From Pseudomonas bubulae (GTDB lineage Bacteria > Pseudomonadota > Gammaproteobacteria > Pseudomonadales > Pseudomonadaceae): a DNA stretch of 64,000 nucleotides. The notes under the pieces are model-generated. The model searched no databases and was not told the origin of the DNA. It was given only the letters and a program-made list of their open reading frames with translations. Positions 3,092 through 9,257 of the stretch are shown piece by piece. Position 1 is the first letter of the stretch. The number at the start of each line of letters is the position of its first letter. The stretch spans positions 3,881,001-3,945,000 of the forward strand of contig NZ_CP146077.1 of assembly GCF_037023725.1 (NCBI RefSeq). The letters run 5' to 3'. A program made the position numbers and the translations under genes.

Positions 3092-3545
3092 CACTCCATC
3101 GCCGGCCAACACCGGCAACGCTGCAGAGATGCCAGGGGCAACCCGAACGCTCTTTAACAACGAACAGCTACACAGCGCCGGACGGGAAAGGTCGTTAGCG
3201 CACTCAAAGGCTGGAGCCTCCCTGAGTGTTGCCGTATCGACCTCGGTAAGACGGCGCGCAACAACACACCTCAGCAAATGGAGGGTTTGCAGTCATGCAC
3301 ATGTGAGCGATTCACCTGCGTGGAGCGGAAAGCCTGAAGGCCGCTCCCAATACCTGGTCAGGCAGCGGACAGCGGGGCCGACGATGTGACCGCGCATCAG
3401 CCGAAAGGCAGGCCCAACCCAACGTACCAAGCAAACTTGATGCAACAACCCCGGGCCGTCGCCAGTAGCGAGCCCGGGTGCTTCACGGACAGTTTCACTT
3501 CTGCCACCGCATCGGTGGCAGCGGGAAAACAACCGGGTAAACATC
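3092..3545 (+). other. Structured untranslated leader with boxA motif
   Basis: No convincing gene lies in these 454 bases. At 3149-3159 is GCTCTTTAACA, identical to the core of the bacterial rRNA boxA antitermination signal. It is followed by a GACGGGAAAGGTC hairpin candidate flanked by GCGC repeats (about 3174-3202). Further on are a stem CCCGGGC/GCCCGGG (3450-3456 with 3472-3478) and a perfect hairpin TGCCACCG-CAT-CGGTGGCA (3502-3520). Together with the repressed promoter upstream this resembles a phage leader under antitermination control. Function is inferred. Confidence 0.55.
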
Positions 3546-3929
3546 ATGGAATCGACAATCGTAGACGGTGCATGGAAAGGCCACCTCGGCCGAGGCCTTG
3601 CGCCGCGGGAACTGCAATTTCTTCTTGCCGTGGCACAAGGCATGACCGCAAAGGAAATCGCCAGAGCGTTCGGCATTGCGCCGGGCACCGTGGTCAAGCG
3701 ACTGGCCTGCGCCATGTTCAAGCTCGGCGTTCACCGTCAGGGCGCTATGGTCGCCGAAGCGATGCGCCGCCAGATCATCACCCCGCTCTGCCTGCTGCTG
3801 GTCGCGGTGATGACCATGCAGGGTCTTGATGACAGCGGGATAGCTCGCCGTGATCGTCGCCCAACTGAGCGCCGAGGTGGCGAGCTGAGAATGGCGCGCC
3901 GCGCTGACTCTTTTGATCTGGTCGGTTAA
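3546..3929 (+). CDS. LuxR-type HTH transcriptional regulator of the prophage
   Basis: A 127-aa protein made almost entirely of a LuxR/FixJ-type DNA-binding domain (about residues 15-72; motif LAPRELQFLLAVAQGMTAKEIARA in which LxxREx5-6AxGxxxxEIA is typical). There is no receiver or ligand-binding domain. A hydrophobic stretch at about 78-92 and a basic tail follow. It is the first gene after the repressor-controlled promoter at 3063 and its boxA leader, so it is likely made on induction and may control later phage genes. No strong ribosome-binding site is seen, so the start is less certain. Confidence 0.75.
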   Translation: MESTIVDGAWKGHLGRGLAPRELQFLLAVAQGMTAKEIARAFGIAPGTVVKRLACAMFKLGVHRQGAMVAEAMRRQIITPLCLLLVAVMTMQGLDDSGIARRDRRPTERRGGELRMARRADSFDLVG

Positions 3930-4120
3930 TCGAATCAACCAGCGCCACGACAGCCTGTCGCTAACTGCCCGAGCCCCTGGTACTCCCCAGCACCAGGCCG
4001 TATCGGTCTGATCTTCGGCATATTCCGGCCAGAGTACAGACCGATGCGGACGCCAACCCAGCAGACGCTGGAGACCTGCATCCCCCTTCCCTACAGACGC
4101 TCAAACCGGAGGACTCAGCC

Positions 4121-4132
4121 ATGCACAAGTAA
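4121..4132 (+). CDS. Three-codon mini-ORF (Met-His-Lys-stop)
   Basis: ATG CAC AAG TAA is preceded at seven bases by GGAGGA (4108-4113), the strongest Shine-Dalgarno match in this part of the element. No longer reading frame uses this start. It sits 63 bp before a terminator. Lambda-type minigenes of this size sequester tRNA through peptidyl-tRNA drop-off; a similar role, or a leader-peptide role, is only inference. Confidence 0.4.
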   Translation: MHK

Positions 4133-4195
4133 CCAAGACGGGCACGCCCGCACAGCCAGGCTCTTACATACGGTGGCGTTTTAAGAGTGCAACAC

Positions 4196-4219
4196 AGCCC
4201 GGTTTCGACTGGGCTTTTT
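4196..4219 (+). terminator. Intrinsic terminator ending the rightward prophage transcript
   Basis: An 8-bp stem AGCCCGGT/ACTGGGCT (one G-U pair) with a TTCG tetraloop is followed by a T tract. It ends the transcription unit begun at 3063, unless antitermination lets polymerase through to the gene at 4321. Confidence 0.85.
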
Positions 4220-4320
4220 AATACCTGCGTTTATCCGTCAGCAGTCCATTGCGCGCCCAGCGGCAAACAGTGTGATGCCTGAGTGCTGACGAATAACCGT
4301 AACCCTGTCGAGGATCGACC

Positions 4321-4668
4321 ATGCACCCATCAATCGCCCAGCGCATCACCGTTCTCGACGGGTTGCGCGCACGTGCCCACCAGGCCACGGCCGAGTTCTA
4401 CCAAAAGCCCGGTGTACAACCACCACCGCTGGCCCCGCTGATCATCGTCCGGCCGAGCGGCAACAACACCTTTTCGCTGATCAATCGGGCTACAGGCGTG
4501 GTTGTGGCCGAGCGCTTCGGCCACAACAACGCCACCAGCCATGCCCGGGCGCTGGAAGCCAAAGCGGCGCAGTTCGGCATCAAGCAATTCGGTCAGCTAC
4601 TGAGAGACTGGGCATTACGCATCAGCGCAATACTGGCCGTACTTGCCCTTTTCAAAAGTCATCTGTGA
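4321..4668 (+). CDS. Conserved-looking prophage protein, unknown function
   Basis: A 115-aa protein, Ala/Arg-rich, with a central segment PSGNNTFSLINRATGVVVAERFGHNNATSHARALEAKA that looks like a small alpha/beta domain. A C-terminal hydrophobic helix (about residues 98-113) could anchor it in the membrane. GAGG lies seven bases before the ATG. It follows a terminator, so expression may depend on readthrough or its own promoter. No family is recognised. Confidence 0.65.
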   Translation: MHPSIAQRITVLDGLRARAHQATAEFYQKPGVQPPPLAPLIIVRPSGNNTFSLINRATGVVVAERFGHNNATSHARALEAKAAQFGIKQFGQLLRDWALRISAILAVLALFKSHL

Positions 4669-4851
4669 AGCATATTAACACCTCAGTGGTACGCCACCCT
4701 CCCTAAGCCCAGTACCAATTGCGACTAAGCGAGTTTGAAATCAAGGGAAATAGCCAAAAACATCCACCGAAAAGGAGCGCGAACAGCCCGACCTCCATAA
4801 ACGCCTGCAGCGAGTCCCAAACGATCGTGCGGAGCAAACCTATGAGCTTTA

Positions 4852-5586
4852 TTATGTGACAAATTTGAAAACATACCGAACCCCCTGTAGCTCCGGACTA
4901 AAGTAATACAAGCCAACGATTGAAAATATCGAAACAAATATAACAAAGGCCAGAGCAAACCAAATAATTTTTACGTTTGAAAAAACCTTAAACTGAACTG
5001 AAATCATGATATTGAAACCTATGAGCAAACACCAAAAAATCAAAACAAGCACAGCCGCAGACACAACGCTTTCCGCCTTTGAGAAAACATTTATTGTTAC
5101 TGCAATGAACGCAAAAAATGAAACAAAAACTGACAGCGCAGAAATCGCATTACCCTTTATATACTTCACCTCTTCCTGCAATTCAGCTTGAAGCTTTTGA
5201 GAGTTACTAGTCTGCGACTTAATATTTTCCAAGCTCAAATTAATAGAGGCAATTAAAGCTTCTGAACTTTCCAATCTTTGAGAAACCTTCTTCTCAGACT
5301 GCTGAACAAAAACTAACTTCTCAGTGAAAATTTCATTGATTTTCGCAGCAGCCGCTGCAGTTGACACCTGAATATACTCATCTATCTTTCTACTGATCAC
5401 CTCTTCCGCAGTAAACGATGACGATCCTCCTACTGGTGAGTTTGGATTTACTGATCCCGTGTTGGTTGAGGATGATGGGTAAAAAGGAGATCCATTTGAG
5501 TTTGTAGATGACGTACTATTATTTTTGTTGTTAACTGCTGAACGATTACTTTTTTGGTTAGCCCCAGAGCTCTCATCTTTTGACAT
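4852..5586 (-). CDS. Unknown membrane protein with Ser/Asn-rich N terminus and coiled coil
   Basis: A 244-aa protein in three parts. Residues 1-55 are a low-complexity Ser/Asn/Gly-rich region. Residues 57-145 are helical and rich in Glu, Lys and Gln (KVSQRLESSEALIASINLSLENI), probably a coiled coil. Residues 147-235 hold about four hydrophobic segments (about 147-168, 173-185, 186-197 and 208-230), so the C terminus lies in the inner membrane. It is the second gene of a two-gene minus-strand operon, starting five bases after the stop of the 220-aa partner, with AAGGTG as ribosome-binding site. Base composition is much more AT-rich than the flanking genes, which points to separate acquisition as a phage cargo gene. 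A sensor-plus-membrane-effector role in phage exclusion is possible but unproven. Confidence 0.75.
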   Translation of the reverse strand: MSKDESSGANQKSNRSAVNNKNNSTSSTNSNGSPFYPSSSTNTGSVNPNSPVGGSSSFTAEEVISRKIDEYIQVSTAAAAAKINEIFTEKLVFVQQSEKKVSQRLESSEALIASINLSLENIKSQTSNSQKLQAELQEEVKYIKGNAISALSVFVSFFAFIAVTINVFSKAESVVSAAVLVLIFWCLLIGFNIMISVQFKVFSNVKIIWFALAFVIFVSIFSIVGLYYFSPELQGVRYVFKFVT

Positions 5587-5590
5587 TTCA

Positions 5591-6253
5591 TTACACCTTA
5601 ATAAAGTCTTTTAAACTGCCGAGTTCAGTTAAAGCGCTGGCTTCAAGTACATAATCGATAACTTCTTTATCATCCAAACTCGACGAATCTGAAAGATCTG
5701 TATTTATATCCCTATTAAATGCGACTCCCGACTCACCAAAATCATTCTGCCCAGTTGAAAAAATAAAAATATTATTACTTTGCTTATTTGCACAAATTAC
5801 TTTTTTTGTTAGCGATATAGTGACCTCACAGATATCATCAGAAGACACCTTCATCAATTCATCTATCAAAAAATCAGCCTTTGCTTGAGCAATAAAAAAC
5901 AACCTAACAAATCCAACTCTTGAAAATACAATTTTCTTCTCGGATAGAATTGACATCAAACTTTGACAGCTAAGAATAAAAGAACAGATATCACCGTCAT
6001 CTATTCCTAGAGGTAACGCTAAAAACAAATCAATTCTACTTTTACTCATAGCTAATCGATAGCCTTCCGAGGTATTAATTTGAAGCCTAGGAAACTCATC
6101 TGGCATCCCGGCCATTTCTGGAATAATCATTGGCTCAAACTCCCCAATATTCATTCTATTCCTAACAGCACTACTAAGCTCGTCTGCTCTGATCGATCCA
6201 GAACTTATAAATAATGCAAGCTGAACAGAGAGAGTTCTAATTCCTTTAAGCAC
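5591..6253 (-). CDS. Unknown 220-aa cytoplasmic protein, partner of the membrane protein
   Basis: The start is set at a GTG (6253) with AGGAG eight bases upstream. An ATG ten codons further up overlaps the -10 box and has no ribosome-binding site. The protein is soluble, without a signal or clear catalytic motif. The middle part (PRLQINTSEGYRLAMSKSRI and later RVGFVRLFFIAQ) and a late DINTDLS motif loosely recall the TIGR04255 family of uncharacterised proteins, but this is a weak impression. Codon use is AT-rich like its partner. It lies inside a prophage, opposite in strand to its surroundings, which is typical of cargo genes for superinfection immunity or defence. Confidence 0.72.
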   Translation of the reverse strand: MLKGIRTLSVQLALFISSGSIRADELSSAVRNRMNIGEFEPMIIPEMAGMPDEFPRLQINTSEGYRLAMSKSRIDLFLALPLGIDDGDICSFILSCQSLMSILSEKKIVFSRVGFVRLFFIAQAKADFLIDELMKVSSDDICEVTISLTKKVICANKQSNNIFIFSTGQNDFGESGVAFNRDINTDLSDSSSLDDKEVIDYVLEASALTELGSLKDFIKV

Positions 6254-6281
6254 GGTAATTACTCCTAAAAAATGGCCGACC

Positions 6282-6287
6282 ATTATA
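6282..6287 (-). promoter_or_regulatory. -10 box of the two-gene cassette
   Basis: A perfect TATAAT on the minus strand lies 29 bp upstream of the GTG start of the 220-aa gene. The region 17 bases further up (TTTTTA) is a poor -35, so an activator or an AT-rich UP element may help. Confidence 0.5.
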
Positions 6288-6289
6288 GC

Positions 6290-6631
6290 ATTATGATGCC
6301 ATGATAAAAATCTACGGCGATATAGCCATTTCTAATATGACAGGTCAGGCTTACGTACAGGAGTGAGCGCTAGCAGAAGACGATGAGGCCGACATCAAAG
6401 TAAGGTGACTAATTTCAGCAACCTTTGGAGCCAGAATGGTTTGACGGCCCGAGGATGAACCCGCACCGATTCAACTGTGAGGCGTTTACAAACACGGCGC
6501 AGCTCATTGTCCTGAAAGAACGAGGGTAGTTCTGTTAAGGCTCGGTCAATGTACGTGTCCCGCTCGATATAGCTGAAGATATACGTAATTCACCTTCAAC
6601 TGATCATCCTTACGGGGCGCATAGTGAGCCG
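6290..6631 (+). other. Decayed or non-coding prophage stretch
   Basis: About 340 bases without a normal gene. Short plus-strand reading frames look like remnants: 6301-6366 starts MIKIYGDIAIS and stops after 21 codons, and 6456-6530 starts MNPHRFNCEAFTNTAQ and stops after 24 codons. I see no promoter, hairpin or repeat that explains it. It is probably a deletion scar between the cassette and the excision genes. Confidence 0.4.
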
Positions 6632-6772
6632 ATGACGAAACTTATCGGCGATGAGTGGTGGCACCTGTCTTGCGACTCCACCGAACCAAACCAATACTAC
6701 ATATCCCTTGAGCGAATCATTCTCGCGATCCAGCTTGAACTGGGCCAAGAACAGCATCACGCAGCAGAATGA
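6632..6772 (+). CDS. Small prophage protein, possibly remnant
   Basis: A 46-aa reading frame with codon use like real genes (start MTKLIGDEWWHLSCDS, end ELGQEQHHAAE). The frame is open upstream to about 6540 without a better start, so it may be the C-terminal end of a longer, broken gene. It ends in an ATGA overlap with the next frame, the arrangement of translationally coupled phage genes. No ribosome-binding site is evident and no family is recognised. Confidence 0.4.
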   Translation: MTKLIGDEWWHLSCDSTEPNQYYISLERIILAIQLELGQEQHHAAE

Positions 6773-6994
6773 GCGCATACGACAAATAAACCAAATCCAG
6801 CAAGTTGCGTCAGAGTGAAGCAGCTTATTCGTCACATGATCAAGACCTAGCAGATACTGCTGACAGCCAAGGTCCATATAGACCGCAACGTCCAGCGCTC
6901 CGAAGTGGTATCACGCCGCGATAGCAATGATATGTGGGCCATGGCCGAACAACTCGAAGCAATCGCCAAACGTAGCAGCAAGAAATACCCATAA
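6769..6994 (+). pseudogene. Broken small prophage gene
   Basis: The ATG at 6769 overlaps the previous stop, but its frame ends after six codons (MSAYDK). Coding-like sequence continues in another frame: VKQLIRHMIKT, then a TAG, then QILLTAKVHIDRNVQRSEVV and on to EAIAKRSSKKYP before a stop at 6992-6994. One frameshift and one nonsense change would explain it. The pieces read together as a short helical phage protein. A sequencing error could also produce this pattern, so reads should be checked. Confidence 0.45.
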
Positions 6995-7045
6995 CCCCTC
7001 CCTCCCCTTAAATGCCTGCCGGTTATCGGCGGGCGAGGTACTCCT

Positions 7046-7585
7046 ATGTCTGCACTTCAGCGATTCCACCAGGCGGCCAATGACACATTGGTAAAGCTGA
7101 GCGAGCACTGCCTGCCAGGCGCCAAACTAGCCTTGGTGATCTACACCACGGGCGAACCAGAGCGGGACATTGTCCTTGAGGATCAAGGCCTCGATAGAAA
7201 TGAAGTAGTCAGCGCCCTGCGCCGGCGCGGCCTAAGCATTGATGGTGACAACGCCTACAAGCGCGACTTGTGCGACTCGATTGTAGGAGCCTTGGCCTCT
7301 GGCGCCCAGAACACCAACCCACCGCCGACCGATCACTGGGGCCAACGGTTTTGGAATATCGGTCGCGAGGAACGATCTTCCACCGAAGAACTGCTGAAAG
7401 CATTTATCAAGTTGGCCGAAATAGCCCGCGAATGTGAACAAATCGCCAGCAACTACAGCGGCACCATTGACGGGATTTTTGAACACGGCGGCGACGACCA
7501 CGAAGACCCGAGCTGCGCAATTTTCCACAAACTGCATTACGCCATGTTCGATGCACGCACCGCCATCGCCAAAGCCACCCGATAA
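7046..7585 (+). CDS. Prophage protein of unknown function (179 aa)
   Basis: A soluble, helix-rich acidic protein of 179 aa with GAGG ten bases before its ATG. The N-terminal half includes LVIYTTGEPERDIVLEDQGL, the C-terminal half EELLKAFIKLAEIARECEQI. It contains no recognisable catalytic motif. It precedes the excisionase-like gene by 43 bases and is in the same direction as the integrase, so it belongs to the excision/integration end of the element. Confidence 0.7.
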   Translation: MSALQRFHQAANDTLVKLSEHCLPGAKLALVIYTTGEPERDIVLEDQGLDRNEVVSALRRRGLSIDGDNAYKRDLCDSIVGALASGAQNTNPPPTDHWGQRFWNIGREERSSTEELLKAFIKLAEIARECEQIASNYSGTIDGIFEHGGDDHEDPSCAIFHKLHYAMFDARTAIAKATR

Positions 7586-7628: not shown

Positions 7629-8045
7629 ATGGCAAACGCAACAGCCGCAAAGGTCGGACAGCACCTGCCGCGCATTCTTCGCGCCGGCGAAGCACCAGGT
7701 TACCTCGGAATGTGCCGCGGCGAATTCGACAAAACAGTCAGACCCCACGTCCGGGAATTTCGTATCGGCACCCAGGGTGTCGGCTTTGACCGGATCGAGC
7801 TGGACGAGTGGGTAGATGCGTACATCGCAAGCAAGCTGATTGAAAAAGCAGTCAATCAGGACAACAATCGGCCTCGCAGCGAGCGCCAAGGCAAAGATAA
7901 CGGAGCTACGCCATGGCCCAAAAAGCAATCACCGGCCTCCAGAAAATGCCGAGCGGCATCTGGAAAATCGACAAAAAGTACAGAGGAGAACGAATTCAAG
8001 AGAGTACTGGCACTTGTGACCGCCAAGAAGCCGAGCAGTACCTGA
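7629..8045 (+). CDS. Excisionase-like DNA-binding protein
   Basis: A 138-aa protein. Residues about 12-70 resemble AlpA/excisionase winged-helix proteins: a GYLGMCRGEFDKTVRP helix-turn-helix, then a beta turn and FDRIELDEWVDAYIASK as recognition and wing elements. The C-terminal 45 residues are basic and disordered and overlap the integrase start by 133 bases in another frame. It would direct the integrase toward excision. The unusually long overlap suggests either coupled control or a true integrase start further downstream. Confidence 0.75.
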   Translation: MANATAAKVGQHLPRILRAGEAPGYLGMCRGEFDKTVRPHVREFRIGTQGVGFDRIELDEWVDAYIASKLIEKAVNQDNNRPRSERQGKDNGATPWPKKQSPASRKCRAASGKSTKSTEENEFKRVLALVTAKKPSST

Positions 8046-9097
8046 TCCACTTGCTGGAAAAGCTTCGACAGGAAAAGGTCTACGGTGTCAAAAAGGTAAG
8101 GACGTGGCGAGAAGCGGCTACCCGCTTCTTGCTGGAGGTGAAGGATCAAGCGTCAATCCATATATCTGCAACCTATATGGCTCAGCTTGATCCGTTCATT
8201 GGGGACATGCCGATCACGCACATCGATGACGACTCCCTGGCACCGTACATTCATTCCAAGCTGCACCCTGCCGAGGGCAAGCCTGTAACGAATCGCACGG
8301 TCAACATTGCCCTTCAACGGGCAATCAGGGTTCTCAATCTATGCGCGCGCAAATGGCGTGATGATGAGCGCAGACCATGGCTAGATGTTGTGCCGATGAT
8401 CTCGCTCCTGGATGAGAAGACGAACTGTCGCAAGCCCTACCCGCTTTCTTGGGAAGAGCAGTCGATCTTGTTCGCTGAACTGCCGGCACACCTGCAGACC
8501 ATGGCCATGTTCAAGGTCAATACGGGGTGTCGGGAGCAGGAGGTTTGCAAGCTTCAGTGGGATTGGGAAATCGCGGTACCGGAGCTGGATACCACGGTGT
8601 TTTTGATTCCGGCCGGGTTCGGCGGACGAAGCGCAAGGTCTGGCGTGAAGAACAGGGACGAGCGCCTGGTGATTCTCAACACGGTGGCCAAGTCGGTCAT
8701 TGAGAAGCAGCGAGGCCAGCACAAGCTCTACGTCTTCCCTTTAGGCAAGCCAGACGGCGAAGGCGACGAAACAATGGTTCACCGCATGAATGACTCAGCC
8801 TGGAAGAAGGCCAGGGTCAGGGCGGCGAAGAAATGGCAGGAGAAGTATTTGCGGCCGGCACATGATGGTTTCGCCCGGATCCGCATTCACGACCTGAAGC
8901 ACACCTTTGGCAGAAGGCTGCGTGCAGCAGGCGTGACTGAGGAGGATCGCAAAGCTTTGCTCGGCCATAAGAACGGCAGCATCACCAGTCACTACTCAGC
9001 GGCAGAGCTGGACCAACTGATTGAGGCGGCAAACAAGGTATCAGTAACCGACTCACGCGCACCAGCGCTGACGATCCTGAAGAGGAGGCAGGGATAA
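7913..9097 (+). CDS. Tyrosine recombinase (phage integrase)
   Basis: A 394-aa tyrosine recombinase. The N-terminal core-binding domain (about 55-160) is followed by the catalytic domain (about 170-375). Visible catalytic residues are the box I Arg in NTGCREQEVCKL, the His of RIHDLKHTFGRRL, the His of LLGHKNGSIT and the nucleophile Tyr in SHYSAAELDQL. Box II reads HxxK where most family members have HxxR; integrases of this kind in Pseudomonas phages can carry it. The gene points at, and ends 84 bases before, the tRNA-Pro 3' end, which is the likely attachment site. Confidence 0.95.
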   Translation: MAQKAITGLQKMPSGIWKIDKKYRGERIQESTGTCDRQEAEQYLIHLLEKLRQEKVYGVKKVRTWREAATRFLLEVKDQASIHISATYMAQLDPFIGDMPITHIDDDSLAPYIHSKLHPAEGKPVTNRTVNIALQRAIRVLNLCARKWRDDERRPWLDVVPMISLLDEKTNCRKPYPLSWEEQSILFAELPAHLQTMAMFKVNTGCREQEVCKLQWDWEIAVPELDTTVFLIPAGFGGRSARSGVKNRDERLVILNTVAKSVIEKQRGQHKLYVFPLGKPDGEGDETMVHRMNDSAWKKARVRAAKKWQEKYLRPAHDGFARIRIHDLKHTFGRRLRAAGVTEEDRKALLGHKNGSITSHYSAAELDQLIEAANKVSVTDSRAPALTILKRRQG

Positions 9098-9164: not shown

Positions 9165-9180
9165 AAGTCATTGAATAATA

Positions 9181-9257
9181 TGGTCGGGACGGAGTGATTC
9201 GAACACTCGACCCCTAGCACCCCATGCTAGTGCGCTACCGGACTGCGCTACGCCCCG
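9181..9257 (-). tRNA. tRNA-Pro (anticodon GGG)
   Basis: A 77-base cloverleaf can be folded. The acceptor arm is CGGGGCG with CGTCCCG (one G-U pair), discriminator A and encoded CCA. The anticodon stem is CTAGC/GCTAG with loop ATGGGGT, giving anticodon GGG. The T arm carries GTTCGAATC. It is the last gene of the merR-ihfA-pheT-pheS block and the integration target of the neighbouring phage element. Confidence 0.96.

What the first reader, a model, noticed from the sequence alone, without database searches (positions are those of the whole stretch)
4852..6287. AT-rich two-gene cassette inside the prophage: candidate superinfection-exclusion or defence system
Two tightly coupled minus-strand genes with their own TATAAT promoter lie in an otherwise plus-strand, GC-richer part of the element. 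One encodes a soluble 220-aa protein of no clear family. The other encodes a protein with a Ser/Asn-rich N terminus, a coiled coil and about four membrane segments. A soluble sensor beside a membrane effector in phage cargo position is a recurring layout of anti-phage systems. Neither protein matches a defence family I can name; the link of the first to TIGR04255 is a faint impression.
Basis: partly seen in the sequence, partly recalled or inferred. Interest (0 to 1): 0.72.

Follow-up and report, generated by a model that had tools for sequence, protein, structure and literature searches.

The report
Prophage sensor–membrane pair, likely phage defence
Two adjacent genes in a prophage of a Pseudomonas-like bacterium, one for a soluble protein and one for a predicted membrane protein, recur side by side in other phages and, with a different membrane partner, on tiny plasmids of gut bacteria; they are likely a phage-defence pair that would stop infected cells, which nobody has tested.

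Summary
Two minus-strand genes at 36% GC (4852-5586, 5591-6253), with an extended -10 (TGCTATAAT) and AGGAG, sit in a plus-strand, GC-richer part of a ~38-kb tailed-phage prophage at tRNA-Pro. The membrane protein has three predicted segments, not four. Neither protein matches a Pfam, PHROG, NCBIfam or PADLOC family at E 0.001. In all 13 loci read, a relative of the soluble gene is followed at once by a gene for a Ser/Thr/Asn-tailed membrane-type protein: tailed phages in two positions, a Pf-like element, seven small enterobacterial plasmids, one other chromosome. On plasmids the soluble family is kept but the membrane partner is a different, shorter protein. In related prophages the slot between repressor and integrase is variable and often holds AT-rich minus-strand genes, among them TIR-TM and AAA-ATPase defence types. 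The soluble protein is acidic, models confidently as a duplicated alpha/beta fold, and is at best a remote relative of TIGR04255. Most likely a two-component anti-phage module that works like RexAB (soluble sensor, membrane effector) without being a RexAB member. No function is shown. New variant of a known kind.

The parts
5591..6253 (-). soluble protein gene, 220 aa, GTG start; proposed sensor
   Evidence: model pLDDT 90
4852..5586 (-). predicted membrane protein gene, 244 aa; proposed effector
5410..5586 (-). Ser/Thr/Asn-rich tail, residues 1-59, predicted disordered
   Evidence: 58% Ser/Thr/Asn; pLDDT mostly under 50
5143..5409 (-). helical stalk, residues 60-148, predicted cytoplasmic
5092..5148 (-). 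membrane segment 1 (residues 147-165), the most conserved part
   Evidence: mean majority-residue share 0.91 for residues 149-170
5002..5058 (-). membrane segment 2 (residues 177-195)
   Evidence: 0.80 for residues 174-198
4912..4968 (-). membrane segment 3 (residues 207-225)
   Evidence: 0.55 for residues 205-229
6282..6290 (-). extended -10 promoter element TGCTATAAT
6262..6266 (-). ribosome-binding site AGGAG
4576..6814 (.). cargo slot: stretch not shared with the nearest relative L130
2185..2895 (+). CI-like repressor, left of the slot
4321..4668 (+). phrog_6742, left border gene of the slot
7046..7585 (+). phrog_16138, right border gene of the slot
7913..9097 (+). integrase of the prophage
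9177..9225 (.). 49-bp attachment repeat within tRNA-Pro, also at L009 11332-11380

Best explanation
The two genes are a conserved cargo module of prophages, a soluble protein predicted to have an alpha/beta fold followed by a predicted membrane protein, and they are likely a two-component anti-phage system of the abortive-infection type, in which the soluble protein would sense infection and switch on the membrane protein. Shown by sequence and calls: the pairing and its order, the variable cargo slot, the AT-richness, the promoter element, the recurrence of the soluble family with another membrane partner on small plasmids. Predicted: the fold, three membrane segments, a disordered tail and a stalk on the cytoplasmic side. 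Inferred: with a promoter of their own both proteins would be present in the lysogen; the soluble protein would bind a phage product (its acidity makes bulk DNA a poor candidate) and then act through the tail or stalk, so that the conserved first two membrane segments open or disrupt the inner membrane and the cell stops before phage is released. Every functional step is untested.
For: Adjacent in all 13 loci read: window, L001, L002, L006, L047, plasmids L230, L232, L234, L236-L239, L243. Distance matrices of 13 pseudomonad-type pairs agree (Mantel r 0.79; 0 of 5000 permutations; 8 of the 13 were paired by equal contig length, not seen side by side). The slot in related prophages is variable: 17 of 25 distinct slots hold an AT-rich ORF, 26 of 58 minus-strand against 3 of 89 plus-strand ORFs, among them TIR-TM and an AriA/PtuA-type ATPase. 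A defence hotspot between cI and integrase is described for a P2-related Vibrio phage (PMC9122126, passages). Soluble-plus-membrane prophage pairs that abort infection are known, one in Pseudomonas putida (PMC12894663, parts 1-4 of 9). The most conserved region of the membrane protein is its first segment.
Against: No phage phenotype exists. PADLOC has no model for either protein, and PADLOC matches in the slot are not special to AT-rich genes: all 118 GC-richer ORFs scanned as control matched 183 models, the 25 listed ones of methyltransferase type. 8 of 25 slots hold no AT-rich ORF. The pair is rare (1 of 398 genus genomes), and the other genome of the same species searched lacks it. Three relatives sit behind lysis genes. 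Interaction of the two proteins was not modelled. A sensor role rests on layout alone.
Confidence: 0.45

Rival explanations
1. Toxin-antitoxin or addiction module: the membrane protein is a toxin held in check by the soluble protein, and the pair keeps prophage or plasmid in the cell.
For: Soluble gene first, membrane gene second, with overlap or a gap of at most 4 bases; carried by elements that gain from addiction, including small Rop-type plasmids.
Against: The soluble protein (217-226 aa in most members) is larger than usual antitoxins (recalled); AT-rich neighbours in the slot include defence types rather than other addiction modules. Such modules can also abort phage infection, so the two readings overlap.
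Confidence: 0.2
2. Superinfection exclusion by blocking entry: the membrane protein sits in the inner membrane and stops DNA of other phages (or plasmids) from entering, with no harm to the cell; the soluble protein helps to place it.
For: Own promoter in a lysogen, three predicted segments, tail and stalk; the same kind of pair is on plasmids, which also exclude relatives (exclusion by plasmids is recalled).
Against: A soluble partner conserved more widely than the membrane protein is not needed by the entry blockers I can recall, such as P22 SieA or T4 Imm.
Confidence: 0.15
3. Lysis function: the membrane protein is a holin or holin regulator of the carrier phage.
For: In L001, L002 and L006 the pair directly follows endolysin and Rz, and I recognised no holin in those stretches (ORF lists and two proteins per locus scanned, not a search for holins).
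Against: In the window the pair is at the other end of the integrated prophage from its endolysin and Rz genes and reads against its neighbours. It also occurs on plasmids (and on), in L243 and in a Pf-like element, a group released without lysis (recalled).
Confidence: 0.05

Closest known systems
RexABpp of Pseudomonas putida prophage P1, PP_5643-PP_5644 (PMC12894663, parts 1-4 of 9 read)
   Same: Prophage-borne pair of a soluble and a membrane protein in a pseudomonad, near the repressor, both genes needed for protection there.
   Different: RexApp is a 37.5-kDa DNA-binding protein like lambda RexA, RexBpp has four segments; here a 220-aa acidic protein and a tailed protein with three segments, transcribed against the neighbouring operon. 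The sequences were not compared directly: I had no copy of PP_5643-5644.
lambda RexAB, with Sbash gp30/gp31, CarolAnn gp43/gp44 and Butters gp30/gp31 (PMC7542560 and PMC11077077, passages; Sbash and CarolAnn papers in a search listing only)
   Same: Soluble plus membrane component in a prophage; heterotypic phage exclusion.
   Different: The membrane components there are described as four-segment proteins; RexA has a basic patch and RdgC-like fold. None of this is found here.
TIGR04255 (sporadic family of unknown function, NCBIfam)
   Same: Distant profile similarity in order over 151 columns; members L011-L013 also stand just before a gene with a hydrophobic stretch (by eye).
   Different: No member of the present family matches the TIGR04255 model at E 10.
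Prophage defence hotspots of P2-like phages, P4-like satellites and a Vibrio phage (PMC9122126, passages)
   Same: A small variable slot between conserved phage genes filled with diverse cargo that includes defence systems; the Vibrio one lies between cI and integrase.
   Different: Another phage group; most cargo in the present slot has no named family.

Membership tests
RexAB-type systems | soluble component related to lambda RexA | tested here: inconclusive
   Sequence profile of the soluble family finds no RexA in the PDB at E 5; RexA is not among the 50 rows of the structure comparison, which does not exclude it
RexAB-type systems | membrane component with four segments | tested here: not met
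   three segments in 37 of 37 aligned members and in the model
RexAB-type systems | non-specific DNA binding by the soluble component | not testable with these tools
   calculated pI 4.6-6.2 speaks against it but is no test
RexAB-type systems | encoded beside the repressor of a prophage | tested here: inconclusive
   within 2 kb of the repressor in the window but in the opposite direction; beside an HTH regulator in L047; behind lysis genes in L001, L002, L006
RexAB-type systems | aborts phage infection through membrane damage | not testable with these tools
   needs bench work
TIGR04255 | match over the curated cut-off of 30 bits | tested here: not met
   0 of 27 family members match at E 10; own genome has none
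TIGR04255 | common profile over the whole domain | tested here: inconclusive
   with 28 members score 33.8, prob 27.6, above all 250 permutations (maximum 21.1) and reversed profiles (15.4); with 34 family members score 32.3, prob 20.5; with only 5 TIGR04255 members prob 0.4
phage holins | encoded with endolysin and spanin | tested here: not met
   true of L001, L002 and L006, not of the window, L047, L243 or the seven plasmids read

The most novel reading that the evidence does not exclude
An undescribed family of anti-phage systems shared by tailed phages, filamentous phages and ColE1-type plasmids: one conserved acidic sensor with a duplicated TATA-binding-protein-like fold drives interchangeable membrane effectors, which it recognises by their Ser/Thr/Asn-rich disordered tail, so that the tail and not the membrane domain is the common interface.
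Probability: 0.33. Interest if true: 0.78.

Novelty: new variant of a known kind. Interest (0 to 1): 0.62.

Why it matters
If true, it adds a sensor family and a simple rule (one sensor, exchangeable tailed membrane effectors) to the soluble-plus-membrane defences first seen in lambda RexAB. Because a form of it lives on 3-kb plasmids of E. coli, the mechanism could be tested in the best-studied host. It also points to a cargo slot in a group of Pseudomonas prophages in which most genes are still unnamed.

Tried and rejected
Family libraries: the weak matches of the membrane protein (ANG-1, DUF5693, phrog_25335 at E 0.009, Cas12c) are low scores of coiled-coil or membrane stretches and were dropped. 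One soluble homologue, the 172-aa P0063, was left out of the alignments.

G855 matched over 58 positions inside a 291-aa frame that looks like a YihY-type protein (recalled label): set aside as chance. G562 matched over 79 positions (i-Evalue 0.00017): left open. PADLOC enrichment as proof that the slot is for defence was dropped because of the control. The iterative search stopped after one round because a program was missing; its list was not used.

Papers: no held paper names TIGR04255. Searches listed no paper that I could recognise as treating this pair; as the genes are called only 'hypothetical protein', such a search is weak. PMC6118388 (passages) reports a different ColE1 gene, an ATPase annotated as abortive infection protein.

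Full report
WHAT IS THERE. The two genes lie on the minus strand at 4852-5586 (244 aa) and 5591-6253 (220 aa). The soluble gene starts at the GTG at 6253: AGGAG stands at 6262-6266 and the start agrees with the relatives, while the longer ORF would begin inside the -10 element. TGCTATAAT at 6282-6290 is the only TGNTATAAT of the window (0.58 expected). No -35 was found, which an extended -10 does not need (established knowledge). The 1.4 kb has 36% GC against a window median of 58%.

THE ELEMENT. The repressor (S24 peptidase, 2185-2895), a sigma-factor-like gene (3546-3929), phrog_6742 (4321-4668), phrog_16138 (7046-7585) and the integrase (7913-9097) all read plus. The integrase ends beside tRNA-Pro. 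A 49-bp repeat, 9177-9225, recurs at L009 11332-11380, which gives a prophage of about 38 kb. Portal, terminase, tape measure, endolysin and Rz genes were recognised in L009 and L010, so it is a tailed phage, and its lysis genes are at the other end of the integrated prophage. The integrase and tRNA end is 79.6% identical in DNA to Pseudomonas syringae phages such as phiPSA1. The host itself is unnamed.

THE SLOT. Compared with its nearest relative L130 (integrase 98.7%, sigma-like protein 99% identical), the window matches at 3485-4575, 6815-7002 and 7629-9096 and nowhere between 4576 and 6814. L130 carries there an AT-rich minus-strand gene of the MtlR kind. Of the viral loci fetched hold both borders in one direction, with 25 distinct slots; 17 of 25 hold at least one ORF of 110 aa or more at 50% GC or less. 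These are 26 of 58 minus-strand and 3 of 89 plus-strand ORFs (Fisher p 6e-10; the slots are related and ORFs were picked by length, so p is only a guide). Of the 29 AT-rich ORFs, 20 were scanned against Pfam and 6 matched at E 0.01: DUF2971, DUF5677, AAA_21 and kin, MtlR, TIR_2 (below its cut-off), SEC-C. All 29 were scanned against PADLOC at E 0.001: of 10, four matched (PDC-S31, a weak type IV restriction match, AriA/PtuA-type ATPase, TIR-TM); among the other 19, PDC-M14B matched two members, TIR-TM one, E2-type models one and PDC-S12 one, and the output does not say whether these members differ. Control: the 118 ORFs above 50% GC from the same slots matched 183 models, the 25 listed ones all of methyltransferase type with up to 10 members each. 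So the slot is a cargo site in which recognised defence genes occur, but PADLOC counts alone do not mark the AT-rich genes.

THE FAMILY. Besides the window's own proteins, searches of 5.8 billion proteins gave 13 soluble and 36 membrane relatives with single sequences, and 26 soluble ones with a profile; those with a named source are from Pseudomonas and Metapseudomonas. The pair is rare: in a draw of 398 genus genomes each protein is found in one, the own genome, and not in the other genome of the same species; among 398 family genomes in two, once a chance match is set aside. Neither protein has a relative in 50,697 phage records and the membrane protein has none in 72,556 plasmid records. 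The soluble protein does: 18 plasmid records at E 0.01 and 29 with a plasmid member as query, 28 of them from Enterobacterales genera and one listed under Flavobacterium. One plasmid form is in 6 of 5426 complete E. coli genomes, all on plasmids.

CONTEXTS READ. Tailed phage, repressor-integrase slot: window. Behind endolysin and Rz: L001 (Pseudomonas entomophila), L002, L006, of which L004 is a second copy. Pf-like element with a replication gene 53.7-56.9% identical to Pf-type phages in the eight rows listed, an integrase and an HTH regulator: L047. Small plasmids: L230, L232, L234, L236-L239. A 1.6-Mb gammaproteobacterial genome: L243. In these 13 loci a gene for a tailed membrane-type protein follows, with an overlap of up to 4 bases or a gap of up to 4. 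Three more plasmids were fetched but their partner was not read: L231 (would run across the record start), L235 (no annotation), L233 (another small ORF and an IS91 transposase follow). In five of five pseudomonad-type loci the pair is AT-richer (35-46% GC) than the locus (57-63%).

PARTNERS. The pseudomonad type has a tail, a 110-residue helix and three segments. The plasmid type has 121-163 aa, a tail, a charged stretch and two segments (one found in L238). The L243 type has a tail, one segment and a charged helical stretch (by eye). The first 45 residues hold on average 42% Ser/Thr/Asn in the 37 pseudomonad-type proteins and 31-44% in the eight others, against 17% in the soluble family. The membrane types are not alike by hhalign (prob 3.1; 13 aligned columns just behind the tail). 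What is common is therefore the soluble protein and the tail; that the tail is the contact is inference.

THE SOLUBLE PROTEIN. The model has mean pLDDT 90 and pTM 0.87 and the order beta-alpha-beta-beta-beta-alpha twice, then a last helix. Nine residues are invariant in 34 of 34 phage-type and plasmid members: Q11, A13, D24, P55, R73, D75, R112, G114, D182. Calculated pI is 4.6-6.2. Comparison with 28 TIGR04255 members aligns 151 columns in order, score 33.8, prob 27.6; 250 permutations reach 21.1 at most and reversed profiles 15.4. With 5 members the probability was 0.4. A distant common origin is plausible; membership is not met.

THE MEMBRANE PROTEIN. Mean pLDDT is 71, the tail mostly under 50. 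Segment 1 is the most conserved region (0.91), then segment 2 (0.80), segment 3 (0.55), stalk (0.52), tail (0.29). Conservation strongest inside the membrane is what a pore would show (inference). Positive charges favour a tail inside only weakly (2.4 and 1.65 against 1.0 and 1.8).

CO-INHERITANCE. Distances among 13 pseudomonad-type pairs correlate (r 0.79; 0 of 5000 permutations as high). Five of the pairs were seen side by side; eight were paired because both proteins were listed with the same longest contig length.

WORKS LIKE, AND MEMBER OF. It works most like RexAB-type systems by layout. RexABpp of P. putida needs both genes; excess RexApp makes RexBpp damage the membrane in a part of the cells and stop growth, without measured depolarisation (PMC12894663, parts 1-4 of 9). 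It is not filed as a member: the membrane components of the described systems have four segments (PMC7542560, passages), here three.

VERDICT. A real, mobile, co-inherited two-gene module in a slot that also bears defence genes; likely anti-phage; mechanism inferred; function untested.

Noticed in passing
L230, L232, L234, L236-L239 (plasmid records): Small Rop-type plasmids of Enterobacterales carry the soluble family with a 121-163 aa tailed membrane partner; on several of them little else but replication genes is annotated.
   Followed up: partly
L134:8913-9740, L144:8555-9400, L117:2775-4912, L130:9717-10337: The same slot in related prophages holds a TIR-TM match (L134; a second one in the set, probably L144, which starts alike), an AAA ATPase with a partner gene, and an MtlR-type gene.
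   Followed up: partly
L009:11852-13195 (+), near the far attachment repeat: A 447-aa ORF (phrog_9788, unknown function) that looks to me like a PIN-type domain protein lies between the attachment repeat and Rz of the same prophage, reading against the lysis genes: possible second cargo gene.
   Followed up: no
L009:14852-15985 (-): O-acetyltransferase gene (phrog_3333) beside the endolysin of the prophage; such genes can alter surface sugars that phages bind (recalled).
   Followed up: no
L009:10609-11256: A piece matching the end of the integrase gene lies just outside the far attachment repeat, as if a second related prophage had once stood at the same tRNA-Pro.
   Followed up: no
L010:17887-19212 (-): A second, different integrase-like gene (phrog_1) lies inside the prophage near its replication genes.
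   Followed up: no
L011, L012, L013: Pseudomonas-group TIGR04255 genes are followed at once by genes of 226-232 aa with a polar start and one hydrophobic stretch (by eye), an echo of the layout described here.
   Followed up: no
L244:3242-4168: A 308-aa frame in another gammaproteobacterium matches the soluble family over 79 residues and may bridge to TIGR04255.
   Followed up: partly
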